This document shows positions 2,711 through 7,128 of a stretch of DNA of 7,128 bases, in pieces; the stretch's first letter is position 1, and every line of letters starts with the position of its first letter. Source of the DNA: Succinivibrionaceae bacterium (lineage in GTDB: Bacteria > Pseudomonadota > Gammaproteobacteria > Enterobacterales > Succinivibrionaceae); the NCBI GenBank assembly GCA_003477345.1, contig DMTG01000208.1:1-7128 (forward strand). Direction: 5' to 3'. Position numbers and translations under genes: made by a program. The notes under the pieces are model-generated. The model saw nothing but the letters and a program-made list of their open reading frames with translations, was not told the DNA's origin and ran no database searches.

Positions 2711-2761
2711 ATGAGCTTTTTCTTTAAGTTTTCTTAATGTTTTTAATATATTCGTAAAATT

Positions 2762-2782
2762 CTAAGGAGGATTGCCGGGCAT
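2762..2782 (-). other. Possible six-residue leader peptide (MPGNPP-stop) upstream of lepA
   Basis: In the lepA leader, an ATG at 2782-2780 opens a reading frame of Met-Pro-Gly-Asn-Pro-Pro and then TAG. An AGAAGG motif (2797-2792) lies 9 nt upstream, a better ribosome-binding site than the one before lepA. The stop is 51 nt before the lepA ATG. Pro-Pro followed by a stop is a known type of slow-translating or slow-terminating sequence. The codons CCT CCT TA also reproduce the anti-Shine-Dalgarno tail of 16S rRNA (CCUCCUUA). Whether it is translated is unknown; an open frame this short can easily arise by chance. Confidence 0.28.
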
Positions 2783-2816
2783 CAGGACAGGCCTTCTGAC
2801 AGCACTCGTAGCTTTA

Positions 2817-2843
2817 AGTATAAAAGAGCACAATGCCAGTCAA
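2817..2843 (-). promoter_or_regulatory. Candidate sigma-70 promoter for lepA-lepB
   Basis: On the minus strand, TTGACT (2843-2838) and TATACT (2822-2817) are separated by 15 nt. Each hexamer is one base from consensus, but the spacer is two shorter than ideal. Transcription would start near 2810 and give a leader of about 100 nt before lepA. Its place between rseB and lepA suggests lepA-lepB can be transcribed independently of the sigma-E operon. No terminator was found after rseB, so read-through is also possible. Confidence 0.45.
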
Positions 2844-2859
2844 TCTCTCTTAAGAGAGA
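2844..2859. repeat. 16-bp perfect palindrome abutting the lepA promoter
   Basis: TCTCTCTTAAGAGAGA is its own reverse complement and ends one base before the -35 hexamer of the candidate lepA promoter. No T tract follows it on either strand, so it does not look like an intrinsic terminator. A dimeric regulator's operator is one reading. A simple-sequence coincidence (TC/GA repeats) is the other. Confidence 0.5.
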
Positions 2860-2953
2860 AAGCATATTTTAGCAATTTTATGCGCTTTTCAAAAATCCAA
2901 GCTAAATATATTATTTTACTACTGTTATCTAAGGTATGCCAAACAGCCTGTGC

Positions 2954-3907
2954 TTATCTGTTTTTAGGATTTATCTTAGAGAGAACCGTCTCTGCAATGG
3001 CATGAGGGATTTCTCCTATGACTGCATACTCGTAGGAAGCGCTGTTGCGGCGCAGCAGAGACAGAGTACCGTTCCTTACCGCCGGTATGGTTACCGACAT
3101 TTTAGGACTTCTATAGACTCTGAAATCGGTAATACCGTCAGAGTATACCTGAAAATCGGCCAGATCTCCTGAAGGGAGAGCCTGCCTGCCTTCTTCTGTA
3201 AGCCTGTAGGACTTAGGTATATTCAGAACCTGCCAGGGTTCTATCTTCTGCTCTGCCCCTGTGTTGTCAGATGCGACACTGAAGCGCTCGAAGATGGCAT
3301 CTTCAGGCAGAGTCTCAGGAATAGAATCAAGCTTTAGGGAGGTGACGGACAGTCTTAGTGCTGTAAGGCCGTCCGGGGTCACTACAGCTAATTCAGTAGG
3401 CAGCGAGCTTTCATCATCCTTGCCCACAAAATAGCTATATCTTAAATCATCCTTAGGTGCCAGTCTTAATATGGTTACCTTTCTGCCCTGCAGTCTGGTT
3501 CTGCCTGCCACCACGCAGGCATAGCCGTCAAGCTTCGAATTTTTATCAAAAATTCTGTCAAAAATCAGCGTCTCGTGCCAGGACAGAGGAGATACCAGAT
3601 TCCTGTCATTGTTGAAGTCGTAGCCTGCAAGATTTTTGAGGGCATAGCCTGCAACCTCGCCATTGAGATTTTTCCAGATGTTGATAGAGGAATTATTCTT
3701 ATAGCGGTGCACCAGACTGTAGGAAGCGTAGGTCTGTCCTGTAGCATTGGAAAGATTCATTTCAAAGCTGGAATAGTAAAAGCGCTGCTGCATATTCTGA
3801 AAATCGAGCATGCAGCTGTTACTGTCAGCCTTGGCGCTGCTTATAGAAAAGAAAAAAAATAAAACCGCAAAGTTAATAAACTTGGCGGTTTCTGATAGTA
3901 ATCTCAT
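2954..3907 (-). CDS. rseB: Periplasmic sigma-E regulatory protein RseB (MucB/RseB family)
   Basis: RseB binds the periplasmic part of RseA, shields it from DegS/RseP proteolysis, and releases it when it senses envelope damage such as lipopolysaccharide intermediates. At 317 residues it is nearly the length of E. coli RseB (318). A Sec signal peptide covers residues 1-27, with hydrophobic core AVLFFFFSIS and cleavage expected at AKA|D. The N-terminal lipoprotein-fold domain covers about 30-200 and contains VAGRTRL (132-139) and LRYSYFVGKDDESSLP (155-170), which align with VGRTRI and TRYSYIVWMDTESKLP of E. coli. The small C-terminal domain, about 220-317, contains VYSDGITDF and YAVIGEIPHAIAE, the family's characteristic end. 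The mature protein has two Cys residues (32 and 131). The ATG is 12 bp after the rseA stop with a close AGG motif, so translation is likely coupled. A terminator-like hairpin lies in the first codons (separate entry). rseC, the usual next gene, is absent. Confidence 0.92.
   Translation of the reverse strand: MRLLSETAKFINFAVLFFFFSISSAKADSNSCMLDFQNMQQRFYYSSFEMNLSNATGQTYASYSLVHRYKNNSSINIWKNLNGEVAGYALKNLAGYDFNNDRNLVSPLSWHETLIFDRIFDKNSKLDGYACVVAGRTRLQGRKVTILRLAPKDDLRYSYFVGKDDESSLPTELAVVTPDGLTALRLSVTSLKLDSIPETLPEDAIFERFSVASDNTGAEQKIEPWQVLNIPKSYRLTEEGRQALPSGDLADFQVYSDGITDFRVYRSPKMSVTIPAVRNGTLSLLRRNSASYEYAVIGEIPHAIAETVLSKINPKNR
3847..3891 (-). terminator. Intrinsic-terminator-like element inside the 5' end of rseB
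   Basis: Read on the coding (minus) strand, AAACCGC (3891-3885) pairs perfectly with GCGGTTT (3868-3862). After one C/T mismatch, AAGTT (3883-3879) pairs with AACTT (3874-3870) around a TATT loop, giving 12 paired positions. Directly after the hairpin come TA, eight T, C and four T (3861-3847). This is the full form of a Rho-independent terminator and is oriented only for the rpoE operon direction. The tract encodes the LFFFFS signal-peptide core, so coding constraint explains part of it. Activity is inferred. Confidence 0.55.
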
Positions 3908-3919
3908 TTGACCTGCAAC

Positions 3920-4555
3920 TTAGTTTGCAGAGGCAGTATTTAAAACGTAACCTCTGATGTAATTGTTAATTCTTTCAGCTTCAAGCTTCTTGGCCTGTTC
4001 CGCATTGGACTCAGCTCTGTAATCACGATCGGCTTTTACATCTTTAGTCTGGGTGCTGCTGTTTTCAAGACGAATAACACTGCTGCCCTGTGAGTTCTGA
4101 TAGCTTGCCAGATTTACTCCGCCGACACTGCCTAAAGTAGCATTGACCGCCGGCTCATCAACCGATAAGTTGGCCTCTGCGTTCCAGGTCTGCCAGCCTA
4201 CTACAGTTACTACAGCCACTGATGCGGCTACAGCAAGCTCGGCTGCTGCAATGCTGAACTGCTTTACATACTTGCGCATTCTGAACTTCAGAGGAACTTT
4301 CTGACTTATCTCGGTCTGATCAAGCTTAGGGGTAGCCTCAAGAGCCACCTTGGCTGCAACCTTGTCGGCAAAGTTCATGTCAATCTTCGGTGACAGTTCC
4401 TTGCGCATGGCTGCACCTATAAGGGACCAGTTCTGAAAATGGGCCTTGCTCTCAGCGTCAGCAGGAATTTCTGCCTTGCCAATGGACTCGCCGTCAAATA
4501 AAGCTGATAGTCTTTCTTCTATAGACTCTTCTGCAGAAATCTTTTCATCTATCAT
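3920..4555 (-). CDS. rseA: Anti-sigma-E factor RseA
   Basis: Single-pass inner-membrane protein whose cytoplasmic domain holds RpoE inactive; sequential cleavage by DegS and RseP frees the sigma factor. At 211 residues it compares with 216 in E. coli. The N-terminal sigma-binding domain, about 10-75, carries RLSALFDGE (15-23), matching QLSALMDGE of E. coli, and QNWSLIGAAMR (41-51), matching the SYHLIRDSMR region. One transmembrane helix spans about 102-122, and a periplasmic domain follows, about 125-211, rich in Asn, Ser and Ala. The segment VAASVAVV aligns with VAACVSLA around the E. coli RseP cut, placing the equivalent cut at Ala111-Ser112. SV-GG or GV-NL near 143-149 are candidate DegS sites. 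The start has AGAGGA 10 nt upstream. The gene is 22 bp after rpoE and 12 bp before rseB. The sequence family is divergent, but position and topology make the call secure. Confidence 0.93.
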   Translation of the reverse strand: MIDEKISAEESIEERLSALFDGESIGKAEIPADAESKAHFQNWSLIGAAMRKELSPKIDMNFADKVAAKVALEATPKLDQTEISQKVPLKFRMRKYVKQFSIAAAELAVAASVAVVTVVGWQTWNAEANLSVDEPAVNATLGSVGGVNLASYQNSQGSSVIRLENSSTQTKDVKADRDYRAESNAEQAKKLEAERINNYIRGYVLNTASAN

Positions 4556-4577: not shown

Positions 4578-5174
4578 TTACTTTGTCAGTTTGGACATAG
4601 AATCTTCTATGAATTTTCTTGCCCTAAAAATTCTTGACCTTACAGTACCTACCGGAATCTTCATAACTACTGCAATGTCTTCGTACGCCATGCCTTCAAC
4701 TTCTCTGAGCATTATTGCCTGCTTCAGATCGGGCGGCAGCTGCTCTAAGGCTTTTAAAATAACATCCTTCAGTTCTTCTGATTCGATAAGCTTATCAGGA
4801 GTATCGCTCGATGTTAAAACACCTTCAGAATCCTTAGATTCAAAATCAGCGGCATCCACATCTACGTCAGCGTGATACCTGTTTTTTGTTTCTATAAAAT
4901 TCTTGCCCGCATTCACAACTATGCGGTAGAGCCAGGTATAAAAAGAACTGTCGCCTCTGAAGCTTCCCAGCGCTCTATAAGCTTTTATAAAAGCATCCTG
5001 GGCTATGTCACTTGCATCTGCAGTATTGCCGGATGCAAATTTCGAGGCAATCTGGAGAACCTTGTGCTGGTACTTTACTACCAGAAGCTGATAGGCGTTT
5101 TTATCGCCTTCGAGCACCCGCTTGACGATAGCGGCATCAGATGATGCATTTGCAATGTCGTTAAGCGTCTCCAT
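4578..5174 (-). CDS. rpoE: RNA polymerase sigma-E factor RpoE (ECF, envelope stress)
   Basis: Group IV (ECF) sigma factor directing transcription of outer-membrane and periplasmic stress genes. At 198 residues it is slightly longer than E. coli RpoE (191), mostly through a longer N-terminus. Region 2 is strongly conserved: LLVVKYQHKV (30-39), DIAQDAFIKAYRAL (56-69) and FRGDSSFYTWLYRIVVN (72-88), which cover core binding and -10 recognition. A variable acidic linker follows (about 100-130). Region 4 is the helix-turn-helix that reads the -35 element: LPPDLKQAIMLREVEGMAYEDIA (146-168) and IPVGTVRSRIFRARK (173-187). The ATG has AAGG 11 nt upstream. It is the first gene of rpoE-rseA-rseB. Two upstream promoter candidates, one of the sigma-E type, point to autoregulation. 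Confidence 0.97.
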   Translation of the reverse strand: METLNDIANASSDAAIVKRVLEGDKNAYQLLVVKYQHKVLQIASKFASGNTADASDIAQDAFIKAYRALGSFRGDSSFYTWLYRIVVNAGKNFIETKNRYHADVDVDAADFESKDSEGVLTSSDTPDKLIESEELKDVILKALEQLPPDLKQAIMLREVEGMAYEDIAVVMKIPVGTVRSRIFRARKFIEDSMSKLTK

Positions 5175-5198: not shown

Positions 5199-5226
5199 TT
5201 TGACCAGAGAAAAACCAAAAAGTTCA
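5199..5226 (-). promoter_or_regulatory. Sigma-E-type promoter of rpoE (autoregulation)
   Basis: On the minus strand, TGAACTT (5226-5220) matches the sigma-E -35 consensus GGAACTT in six of seven positions. GGTCAAA (5205-5199) matches the -10. The 16 nt between GAACTT and TCAAA is the same spacing as in the E. coli rpoH P3 promoter. Transcription should begin near 5193, leaving a leader of about 19 nt that just includes the AAGG ribosome-binding site. Confidence 0.75.
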
Positions 5227-5426: not shown

Positions 5427-5452
5427 AGATAAGATTTGGCTTTATCTTATCT
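5427..5452 (+). repeat. 9-bp inverted repeat just before the channel gene
   Basis: AGATAAGAT (5427-5435) and ATCTTATCT (5444-5452) are perfect reverse complements separated by 8 nt (TTGGCTTT). The GTG start is 13 nt after the second arm. No T tract follows on either strand, so it is not a typical terminator. It could be an operator or an mRNA hairpin affecting ribosome access. The arms are AT-rich, so the hairpin would be weak. Confidence 0.45.
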
Positions 5453-5465
5453 TCCGAATAAATTT

Positions 5466-7128
5466 GTGAAAAATAAACTTTCTATCTGCACATTCTTAAT
5501 TGTATTTTTCCTGTCTTTTAATTTAACCTACGCAGCTGAAACTAAAATTTCTGAGGTCGAAACGGATATTGGACTGGTATCCCCGATAAATTCCGCAGAT
5601 CTGAAAACTGCCTTTGAATTTCTGACCAATGACAGCGCCATGGCCAGCGAAGACAAGCAGAACGCGCTTGATATTCTCGATCAGGCCAAGGTGCTGCTTG
5701 AAGAGTACAAAGCCATAACCGAAGAAAGGGACGATTTTCTCAAGCAGAAAAAAGCCGCTGAAAAAAAGCTGAAATCGCTCCCTCACGAATTAGCTCAGGC
5801 AGAAAAAAACTACAAGGCAGCTCCCCCTGAGATTAGTGATTCTCTAAGCGACAGCGATCTGCAGAAACTGTTCTCTGACGTATCGGCCAAAGTCGACGAA
5901 TATCAGCTCGAGCTTGCAAATGCCAGCTCCAACTATTCAGCGCTGCAGACCCTGCCTGAAAGAGTTCAGTATGAAATCGCCGCCAACAATGAAAAAATCA
6001 AGAACTCCTATTTAATAATCAACGCTGACAATGATACAAGAAGCATAAAATCCCGCACTGAAGCTCTGCGCATTACTAATCTTAAAGAAAAAAACTCCTT
6101 ACTCAAAAATAGATTAGAGTCCAATCCTCAGCTTCTGGATTACTCAAATTACAAGGAAAAAATCTCTGCCCTGAAGAACAGCTACTATTCTCACTATCTC
6201 AACCGCATCAAAGATGCTCAGAATCTCAGAGTTTCAGCTGAAAGCGTCAAGGATGAAAAAAGAATCAAAGAGATTTCAGAGAAAAGTCCTGCCTTAAAAA
6301 AAGAAATTGAATCCAACGAATTCATATACAAAGTTACCAGTGATCATCAGCAGAAATATCTGACTCTTGTGCAGGATGCGCAGGACATTTCCAATGCGCT
6401 GGCTAAAATCAGAATAATTGATAAGAACTTAGAAAATCAGCTGCAGGGACTGGATAAAAGTCTGGTGCTCTCTCGCCTTTTAAACCGCGAGCAGACAGAA
6501 ATTCCAACCAAAATGCTTGATTACAATATTGAAGAGCTGATACCGAACCTGAATATCTGGATATACGATCTGCGTGAATTCAAAGACAAACTGTTCGATA
6601 TCGATAAGTACATAGAAGAAAGCATTCTTAAAAACCCTGAGCTTGCCAGCTACAGAGAGGAGCTTGAAGAAGTGCTTATCGCCAGGAACGATCTGGTAAA
6701 CGAGCTTTATAAAATCCTTACAGGAGAGCTGGGCATAGCCATATCCTTAAAAGAAGACTATGCCTCCCTCAATGATCTCAGAGCCAAGCTGTCCTCTAAG
6801 ATCACCGAAAACCTGTTCTGGGTAAAATCCAATCAGCCAGTCAGTCTTGAGTTCGTACAGAACATAATTCCAGGTCTGAGTTACGGCTGGGGCAATCTCA
6901 CAGCAAGATTAAGAACCGCCTCCTACTGGGAGAATACGACCAGCACAATTTTCAATCTGGTAATTCCTGCGGTTCTGCTCGCTCTGGTGGTGCTGTTTTT
7001 CAAAAAGAAGCTCGTAACTATCGATAACAGTCTTGCTGCCCGTCTGGACAAGAAAAACGACAACATCTACATTACCCCTGCGGCAATTTTAGTAAAGCTC
7101 GTATACATAATTCCAGGAGTGGTCTGGA
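5466..7128 (+). CDS. MscK/MscM-type large mechanosensitive channel, N-terminal part
   Basis: Large MscS-superfamily channel of the inner membrane that opens on membrane tension to release solutes in hypo-osmotic shock. 554 codons are visible and the frame is open to the window end; family members are about 1,100 residues. A signal peptide covers residues 1-23 (core CTFLIVFFLSF, cleavage near TYA|A). A long, highly charged coiled-coil periplasmic domain, about 25-485, resembles the MscS_porin region. Near its end, ENLFWVKSNQPVSLE recalls the LLxEIxWVPDNPPMS segment of MscM/MscK. The first inner-membrane helix is at about 494-512 (LVIPAVLLALVVLFF), followed by basic residues, and a second begins at the edge. 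The pore-forming MscS domain lies beyond the window. GTG at 5466 is chosen because it gives a normal signal peptide; a TTG at 5436 is in frame and possible. Neither has a good Shine-Dalgarno. MscK and MscM cannot be told apart from this part, so no symbol is given. Confidence 0.82.
   Translation, partial: MKNKLSICTFLIVFFLSFNLTYAAETKISEVETDIGLVSPINSADLKTAFEFLTNDSAMASEDKQNALDILDQAKVLLEEYKAITEERDDFLKQKKAAEKKLKSLPHELAQAEKNYKAAPPEISDSLSDSDLQKLFSDVSAKVDEYQLELANASSNYSALQTLPERVQYEIAANNEKIKNSYLIINADNDTRSIKSRTEALRITNLKEKNSLLKNRLESNPQLLDYSNYKEKISALKNSYYSHYLNRIKDAQNLRVSAESVKDEKRIKEISEKSPALKKEIESNEFIYKVTSDHQQKYLTLVQDAQDISNALAKIRIIDKNLENQLQGLDKSLVLSRLLNREQTEIPTKMLDYNIEELIPNLNIWIYDLREFKDKLFDIDKYIEESILKNPELASYREELEEVLIARNDLVNELYKILTGELGIAISLKEDYASLNDLRAKLSSKITENLFWVKSNQPVSLEFVQNIIPGLSYGWGNLTARLRTASYWENTTSTIFNLVIPAVLLALVVLFFKKKLVTIDNSLAARLDKKNDNIYITPAAILVKLVYIIPGVVW

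What the first reader, a model, noticed from the sequence alone, without database searches (positions are those of the whole stretch)
3847..3891. Intrinsic terminator embedded in the signal-peptide codons of rseB
The sequence shows a 7-bp plus 5-bp hairpin with one mismatch, followed directly by TATTTTTTTT C TTTT, oriented for the rpoE operon. It begins 16 nt downstream of the rseB A of ATG, so it lies within the coding sequence. Inference: most transcripts may end after rseA, giving less RseB than RseA. A ribosome initiating on rseB would cover the first arm, so termination would depend on rseB translation, which is an attenuator-like arrangement. RseB is a brake on RseA cleavage, so its dose would set the sensitivity of the stress response. 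The alternative is that a Phe-rich signal peptide produces the T run and the hairpin is incidental. I know of no described attenuator at this site.
Basis: partly seen in the sequence, partly recalled or inferred. Interest (0 to 1): 0.72.

Follow-up and report, generated by a model that had tools for sequence, protein, structure and literature searches.

The report
Terminator hidden in rseB's signal peptide
In a family of gut bacteria, the first codons of the stress-brake gene rseB also spell a strongly conserved RNA stop signal, which likely ends most transcripts just after the neighbouring gene rseA and so would keep RseB scarcer than RseA; similar arrangements with different sequences turn up in other bacterial families.

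Summary
A 7+5-bp hairpin (window 3892-3861, minus strand) followed by a T tract (3860-3847) lies in the signal-peptide codons of rseB. In Succinivibrionaceae, 34 of 53 genomes with RseB have a hairpin plus T tract there, with about nine unrelated stem sequences; seven more, plus two weaker, have one upstream of rseB instead. Controls: 11 of 594 windows inside rseA/rseB, and 9 of 308 gene starts sampled from one complete genome. Synonymous recoding rarely matches it (window 4/200; 34 genomes together 108/6800). In 19 genomes the arm codons are frozen: GCG 19/19, GTT 19/19, ACC 16/16. Strength and distance from the rseA stop match ordinary operon-end terminators. A separate version occurs in Agarivorans and Aliagarivorans (9 of 12 genomes of that family), others elsewhere, none in E. 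coli K-12. rseB in these genomes usually lacks a Shine-Dalgarno site. Best reading: a real intrinsic terminator ending the rpoE-rseA message, with rseB made by read-through. Ribosome control of read-through is plausible but untested; no competing antiterminator fold is predicted. No transcript data were available.

The parts
5199..5226 (-). predicted sigma-E-type promoter of the operon (TGAACTT, 16 nt, TCAAA), 52 nt before the rpoE start codon
   Evidence: best match in a simple consensus scan of 306 nt upstream, 11 of 12 positions with three allowed -10 forms; consensus recalled, and GAACTT-type sites are listed for Shewanella RpoE in PMC4336711 (passages)
4578..5174 (-). rpoE, ECF sigma factor
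   Evidence: Pfam Sigma70_r2, Sigma70_r4_2
3920..4555 (-). rseA, anti-sigma-E factor
   Evidence: Pfam RseA_N, 44.7 bits over cut-off 24
3908..3919 (-). 12-nt gap between the rseA stop and the rseB start, with only a weak AGG (3914-3912) as ribosome site
   Evidence: sequence; anti-SD energy -3.4 kcal/mol
2954..3907 (-). rseB, with apparent signal peptide MRLLSETAKFINFAVLFFFFSISSAKA
   Evidence: Pfam MucB_RseB and MucB_RseB_C; signal peptide read by eye
3861..3892 (-). terminator hairpin inside codons 6-16 of rseB
   Evidence: -14.1 kcal/mol; conserved across the family; synonymous null
3847..3860 (-). T tract (A, eight T, C, four T), coding for the Phe-rich core of the signal peptide
   Evidence: sequence

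Best explanation
The hairpin and T tract in the first codons of rseB are a conserved RNA element that is predicted to act as the intrinsic terminator of the rpoE-rseA message. It sits 27 nt after the rseA stop codon (26-64 nt, median 32, in 33 family genomes), within the range where ordinary operon-end terminators sit, and rseB's signal peptide is written over it (shown by sequence). RNA polymerase would usually stop there, so rseB message would come from read-through and RseB would be made at a lower dose than RseA (inferred). rseB starts without a good ribosome-binding site (shown by sequence), so it likely depends on ribosomes finishing rseA; one that restarts and moves a few codons into rseB would melt the hairpin and let polymerase through (inferred, the least certain step).
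For: Family survey: 34 of 53 genomes with D >= 17 in rseB codons, 7 with D >= 18 upstream of rseB, 2 with D 16.6 there, 10 not counted as having one. Controls: 11 of 594 interior windows; 9 of 308 gene starts of G015, rseB itself (whose stretch was included on purpose) ranking first. Synonymous null: 40 of the 53 tested; all 34 with the hairpin had 0-14 of 200 recodings as good, 108 of 6800 together. Frozen codons GCG 19/19 (background 13%), GTT 19/19 (36%), ACC 16/16 (32%). Strength: of 80 G015 gene ends facing an opposite-strand gene, 24 reach D 17 (median of these 21.4), 8 reach G015's own rseB value 22.3 and 1 reaches the window's 25.5; stop-to-hairpin distance there 17-92 nt. Outside the family: 18 of 95 genomes inside codons and 15 upstream of or over the start; 17 of those 18 tested by recoding, 0-2 of 200 each; three both-sided pair changes in the Agarivorans-group stem, all in one of 6 distinct rows. 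Missing SD: rseB median -0.9 kcal/mol, 4 of 34 at -4 or better; outside the family 1 of 18 intragenic, 3 of 15 upstream, and 32 of 62 where no terminator is found. In E. coli a closely trailing ribosome stops intrinsic termination inside genes (PMC13323073, passages).
Against: No transcript ends or RNA depth could be seen. 10 of 53 family genomes lack a counted terminator; in 2 of these rseB is not next to rseA (G070, G071), and 5 have a short gap yet none counted (G031, G076, G034, G022, G078). Within the 19-sequence ACCGC group the lower stem has no both-sided changes, so the support there is codon freezing, not covariation. In some relatives up to 7% of recodings score as well. Start codons of several loci (L003, L006, L009, L042-L045, L049, L052, L053) are uncertain. 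The genomes are related, so counts overstate independence. The simple scan missed the site.
Confidence: 0.77

Rival explanations
1. Plain operon insulation: the terminator only ends the sigma-E autoregulated unit so that lepA-lepB are not driven by stress; rseB read-through is constant and unregulated, and its overlap with rseB is a by-product of the short gap.
For: Position and strength match ordinary operon-end terminators. In the window no terminator is found between rseB and lepA, and the best promoter-like site of the window (10 of 12) is at 2942-2913 before lepA. Long-gap relatives use intergenic terminators.
Against: An insulator would be expected after rseB, not before it (inference). 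The loss of the rseB Shine-Dalgarno site together with the terminator suggests that rseB dose itself is being lowered.
Confidence: 0.4
2. Incidental: a hydrophobic, Phe-rich signal peptide gives T runs and a chance palindrome, with no function.
For: The peptide does favour such scores: null means are above zero and up to 7% of recodings reach the observed score in single relatives.
Against: 34 of 53 genomes, about nine stem types, frozen synonymous codons, upstream substitutes, and separate cases elsewhere.
Confidence: 0.04
3. The hairpin is the 3' end of a regulatory small RNA cut from the end of the rpoE-rseA message, and sRNA supply, not RseB dose, is what is selected.
For: A terminator stem with a U tail is what Hfq-bound 3'-derived RNAs need (recalled), and ORF-internal RNAs exist in E. 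coli (PMC7815308, passages).
Against: Stem sequence is replaced freely between genera, unlike a pairing seed; no Rfam family matches the window at gathering score.
Confidence: 0.08
4. The inverted repeat is a DNA operator or an uptake-type repeat rather than an RNA element.
For: ACCGC...GCGGT is an inverted repeat with a fixed core in 19 relatives; its halves are 1.5 times over expectation in the G015 sample.
Against: Spacing and sequence vary between genera and a T tract follows; the full pattern occurs only 1-10 times per genome in six genomes, both strands counted.
Confidence: 0.03

Closest known systems
Internal operon terminators that set gene stoichiometry (ABC transporters of cellulolytic clostridia, PMC9045158, passages)
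   Same: a stem-loop terminator inside an operon, after the gene needed in excess, with read-through supplying the rest
   Different: those lie in intergenic regions; here the terminator is inside the coding sequence of the downstream gene and doubles as its signal peptide
Leader-peptide transcription attenuators (trp type; recalled)
   Same: a terminator whose use could depend on a ribosome translating the overlapping codons
   Different: no antiterminator fold predicted; the translated ORF is the regulated gene itself, not a leader peptide
ORF-internal 3' ends and premature termination in E. coli (PMC7815308, passages)
   Same: 3' ends near or inside the start of genes, some intrinsic
   Different: rseA, rseB and rpoE are not found in its main text, and in E. 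coli K-12 rseA and rseB overlap by one base and my scan finds no such element
rpoE-rseA-rseB-rseC operons of E. coli and Shewanella (PMC4336711, passages)
   Same: same gene order rpoE-rseA-rseB and a sigma-E-type promoter upstream
   Different: described there as one operon; the word terminator does not occur in its main text

Membership tests
Intrinsic (Rho-independent) terminator | stable G+C-containing hairpin | tested here: met
   -14.1 kcal/mol in the window; kept in the fold with upstream sequence
Intrinsic (Rho-independent) terminator | U-rich tract directly after the stem | tested here: met
   A, eight T, C, four T; tail score 5.72
Intrinsic (Rho-independent) terminator | RNA 3' ends in the tract, in vivo or in vitro | not testable with these tools
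   no transcript data held
Internal terminator setting operon stoichiometry | lies between the products of one operon and is conserved | tested here: met
   34 of 53 inside rseB codons, 9 more upstream of rseB, two of these weak
Internal terminator setting operon stoichiometry | lower expression downstream than upstream | not testable with these tools
   needs RNA-seq or reporters; missing SD sites agree but do not prove it
Leader-peptide or switch-type attenuator | mutually exclusive antiterminator structure | tested here: not met
   0.89-1.00 of hairpin pairs kept in the fold from -60 to the hairpin end in 34 of 34 genomes; only this stretch was folded
Leader-peptide or switch-type attenuator | termination changes with translation of the overlapping codons | not testable with these tools
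   needs start-codon and coupling mutants

The most novel reading that the evidence does not exclude
The rseB signal peptide is a dual-code translation gate: ribosomes coming off rseA restart weakly at an rseB that has no Shine-Dalgarno site, and only those that enter its codons melt the terminator, so RseB output is tied to how well rseA is being translated. The gate has evolved repeatedly, with different stems, in at least three gammaproteobacterial families, making RseB dose an evolvable sensitivity dial of the envelope stress response.
Probability: 0.33. Interest if true: 0.8.

Novelty: new variant of a known kind. Interest (0 to 1): 0.66.

Why it matters
The rpoE-rseA-rseB operon is usually drawn as one unit, with RseA and RseB made together. 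If transcripts mostly end inside rseB's signal peptide, the brake on RseA cleavage is set low by design and its dose becomes a tunable, testable setting of the stress response. It would also be a clear case of one stretch of sequence carrying a protein export signal and a transcription stop at once, with unrelated versions in several families, and it gives a simple rule to look for elsewhere: a terminator in the first codons of a downstream gene that lacks a ribosome-binding site.

Tried and rejected
Uptake-type or operator repeat: rejected; ACCGC...GCGGTTTT occurs 1-10 times per genome in six genomes, both strands counted, and its core is 1.5 times over expectation in the G015 sample. Classical attenuator with a competing fold: not found. 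Rfam: no match at gathering score. Covariation inside the ACCGC group: none in six pairs, reported as a negative. Misplaced rseB start: in L001 no other in-frame start codon lies between the ATG and the hairpin, and a later start would remove the signal peptide. Terminator after rseB as the real operon end: of the 33 loci L001-L033, 19 had none between rseB and lepA (the window among them), 13 had a match of varied quality (D 14.9-27.5), and L024 ran off its contig. Literature: ten searches (listings and starts of abstracts) gave no listing that described a terminator between rseA and rseB. The 16 papers that hold rseB, rseA and terminator together were not opened, and only open-licence papers are held, so this is not proof of absence.

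Not tested, dropped or biased: the synonymous null left out 13 of 53 family genomes (L026, L027, L030-L032, L036-L041, L054, L055) and one of the 18 outside cases (L196). Not counted as terminators although D is 17 or more: G066 (D 18.2, 72-110 nt into an uncertain rseB start), G078 (D 17.6, a weak -8.6 kcal/mol hairpin over the start), G070 (D 20.5, at an uncertain start 382 nt from rseA) and G071 (D 20.3 and 17.2, several hundred nt before rseB). For G063 and G064 no rseA was found in the stretch fetched. Duplicate loci L034 and L035 were not used; L012, nearly identical to L011, is not among the 19. Of the order genomes, six with full RseB hits (G082, G099, G115, G130, G154, G166) and two with partial hits (G080, G090) were not fetched. 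No matched control windows were run outside the family, starts there were called by script and some are surely wrong, and several of those 33 hits have short T tails. The score D (minus folding energy plus twice the tail score) and the cut-off 17 are my own, and 17 was set after seeing the family scan. The rseA Shine-Dalgarno figure is the best of up to six candidate starts and G015 starts were called partly by Shine-Dalgarno, so those two comparisons are biased upward; the comparison of genomes with and without the terminator is not, but it ignores relatedness.

Full report
What is there. On the minus strand the window reads rpoE (5174-4578), rseA (4555-3920), rseB (3907-2954), lepA and lepB, with Pfam support for all. 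The rseA stop and the rseB ATG are 12 nt apart. From 15 nt after the A of ATG runs a hairpin of 8 plus 5 pairs (the outermost G.U) with one mismatch and a four-base loop, then A, eight T, C, four T. These bases are codons 6 onward of what reads as a normal signal peptide (MRLLSETAKFINFAVLFFFFSISSAKA). Folding energy is -14.1 kcal/mol and the 121-nt junction folds 2.65 standard deviations better than shuffles. The consensus scanner did not list it. A sigma-E-like promoter (11 of 12 positions) lies 52 nt before rpoE.

The organism. The window's genome G000 (59% complete, 320 contigs) lies in the same family as cultured Succinivibrionaceae: shared contig lengths link G010 to Succinivibrio dextrinosolvens DSM 3072, G029 to Succinatimonas hippei YIT 12066 and G009 to Succinivibrio faecicola. 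Protein divergence is large: RseB of twelve relatives is 35-42% identical to the window's, so a palindrome shared by chance should have been lost at third positions (inference).

Survey of the family. 53 of 56 genomes held have RseB. I scored hairpin plus T tract as D = minus folding energy + 2 x tail score. 34 of 53 have D of 17 or more inside rseB codons. Seven have D of 18 or more upstream of rseB (G009, G032, G023, G067, G062, G061, G064) and two a weaker one there (G065, G060, D 16.6); in these the rseA-rseB gap is 55-278 nt, except G064, where rseA was not in the stretch fetched. Ten are not counted: G031, G019, G066, G063, G076, G034, G022, G078, and G070 and G071, where rseB lies 382 and 1214 nt from rseA; four of the ten do have a match of D 17 or more at some other or uncertain place (G066, G078, G070, G071). 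The stems fall into about nine unrelated sequences (my count): ACCGC...GCGGT in most, and others such as AAGGAGC...GCTCCTT, GAGCCTGCA...TGCGGGCTC, AGCAAGTGC...GCGCTTGCT, TGCAGGTAG...CTATCTGCA, GGCAGTACTG...CAGTATTGCC and GCGGCA...TGCCGC.

Controls. In the same 53 genomes 11 of 594 interior 110-nt windows of rseA and rseB reach D 17. In the complete genome G015, 9 of 308 called gene starts do, and rseB, whose stretch was included on purpose, is the highest of the 308. The 34 family values all stand when only 6 nt before to 93 nt after the start are scanned, a shorter window than the controls. A different scan of G015 gave one gene start of 308 with energy at or below -11 and tail at or above 4: rseB.

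Same peptide, other codons. For 40 of the 53 genomes I recoded the first 27 codons 200 times with each genome's own rseA/rseB codon usage. The 34 with the hairpin had 0-14 recodings as good (window 4; total 108 of 6800); the other six (L023, L046 with a weak match, L047, L048, L050, L017) have no such hairpin in the codons. In the 19 genomes with the (T/A)(A/V)...AV(F/L) peptide, the 3' arm uses GCG for Ala in 19 of 19 (13% in the rest of rseA/rseB) and GTT for Val in 19 of 19 (36%); the 5' arm uses ACC for Thr in 16 of 16 (32%), the other three having Ala. Against this, the six lower pairs in that group show no both-sided change: the signal is frozen codons, not covariation.

It looks like an operon end. 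From rseA stop to hairpin is 26-64 nt, median 32, in 33 genomes (L019 left out because its rseA alignment ran through an upstream stop). Of 80 G015 genes whose next called gene is on the other strand, 24 have a terminator of D 17 or more (median 21.4), 17-92 nt from the stop; 8 reach G015's own rseB value of 22.3 and one the window's 25.5. So by strength and place this is a regular end-of-operon terminator with the next gene's signal peptide written over it.

Beyond the family. Among 95 other genomes of the order, 18 have D of 17 or more inside rseB codons and 15 upstream of or over its start; 62 have none. No matched control was run there, starts were called by script, and several hits have short T tails, so this count is rough. 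9 of its 12 genomes, in the genera of Agarivorans and Aliagarivorans, have GATGCCAG-type stems 18-49 nt into rseB; one (Alginatibacterium) has one upstream; two (one of them Celerinatantimonas) have none. None of 200 recodings was as good in each of the nine. Three pairs changed on both sides, all in the Aliagarivorans row (6 distinct rows; 6 of 500 shuffles as high). A second family (f27, unnamed) has 3 of 5 inside codons (0 of 200 recodings each, but with codon usage from only 64-65 codons), and a third (f8, unnamed) 6 of 7 in the gap. In E. coli K-12 rseA and rseB overlap by a base and the scan finds nothing.

The ribosome site. Where the terminator lies in rseB codons the start has little Shine-Dalgarno pairing: median -0.9 kcal/mol, 4 of 34 at -4 or better, against -6.8 and 34 of 34 for rseA (best of up to six starts, so biased) and -2.5 for random in-gene stretches. 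Outside the family, -4 or better is met by 1 of 18 with an intragenic terminator, 3 of 15 with one upstream or over the start, and 32 of 62 without; of five short-gap family genomes without a counted terminator, three have -6.5. The two features go together, though relatedness is not corrected for. This makes sense mechanically: a well-loaded rseB would keep its own terminator from forming (inference).

Mechanism. Shown: the element, its place, its conservation and the weak start. Inferred: RNA polymerase mostly stops in the T tract, and RseB is made from read-through at a lower dose than RseA. Inferred, least certain: a ribosome that has ended rseA and restarted on rseB melts the arm and allows read-through. 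In E. coli a closely trailing ribosome stops nascent RNA from triggering intrinsic termination (PMC13323073, passages), so gating is plausible in these relatives. There is no sign of a competing antiterminator, so this is not a trp-type switch. RseB and its homologue MucB shield RseA and MucA from cleavage by DegS and AlgW (PMC7400510, passages), so a lower RseB dose would be expected to make the response easier to trigger.

Novelty. Internal terminators that set operon ratios are known, e.g. in intergenic regions of clostridial ABC-transporter operons (PMC9045158, passages), and hundreds of 3' ends inside 5' UTRs and ORFs are reported in E. coli (PMC7815308, passages; rseA, rseB and rpoE not found in its main text). 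I saw no description of one at rseB in ten searches of open-licence papers (listings; the 16 papers were not opened). Hence a new variant of a known kind, with the dual use as signal peptide and the unrelated versions in several families as the new parts.

Noticed in passing
window 3908-3919 and rseB starts of 34 family loci: rseB starts in these Succinivibrionaceae have little Shine-Dalgarno pairing (median below that of random in-gene stretches), although rseA upstream has a strong one.
   Followed up: partly
window 2711-2953, minus strand: rseB is followed by lepA with no rseC as in E. coli, no terminator found in the 243-nt gap, and the best promoter-like site of the window at 2942-2913.
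   Followed up: partly
L026, L027, L036-L041, L054, L055 (genus g2; Anaerobiospirillum by name): RseB is longer (open frames 375-523 aa) with its two domains matched apart, and the rseA-rseB gap is 130-278 nt where rseA was found.
   Followed up: no
L031 (G070) and L032 (G071): rseB has come apart from rseA by 382 and 1214 nt, and no ACCGC-type hairpin is seen in its first codons; a small natural control.
   Followed up: partly
   Followed up: no
L131, L132, L135, L136, L139, L179 (family f8, about 2-Mb genomes): Related CACCAC...GTGGTG terminators lie in the rseA-rseB gap, a similar but intergenic arrangement.
   Followed up: partly
L008 and L033: The tool reports one in-frame TAA inside the RseB match of these two genomes; not examined.
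   Followed up: no
window 5436-7127, plus strand: A divergent gene with an MscS-porin domain, running off the window.
   Followed up: no
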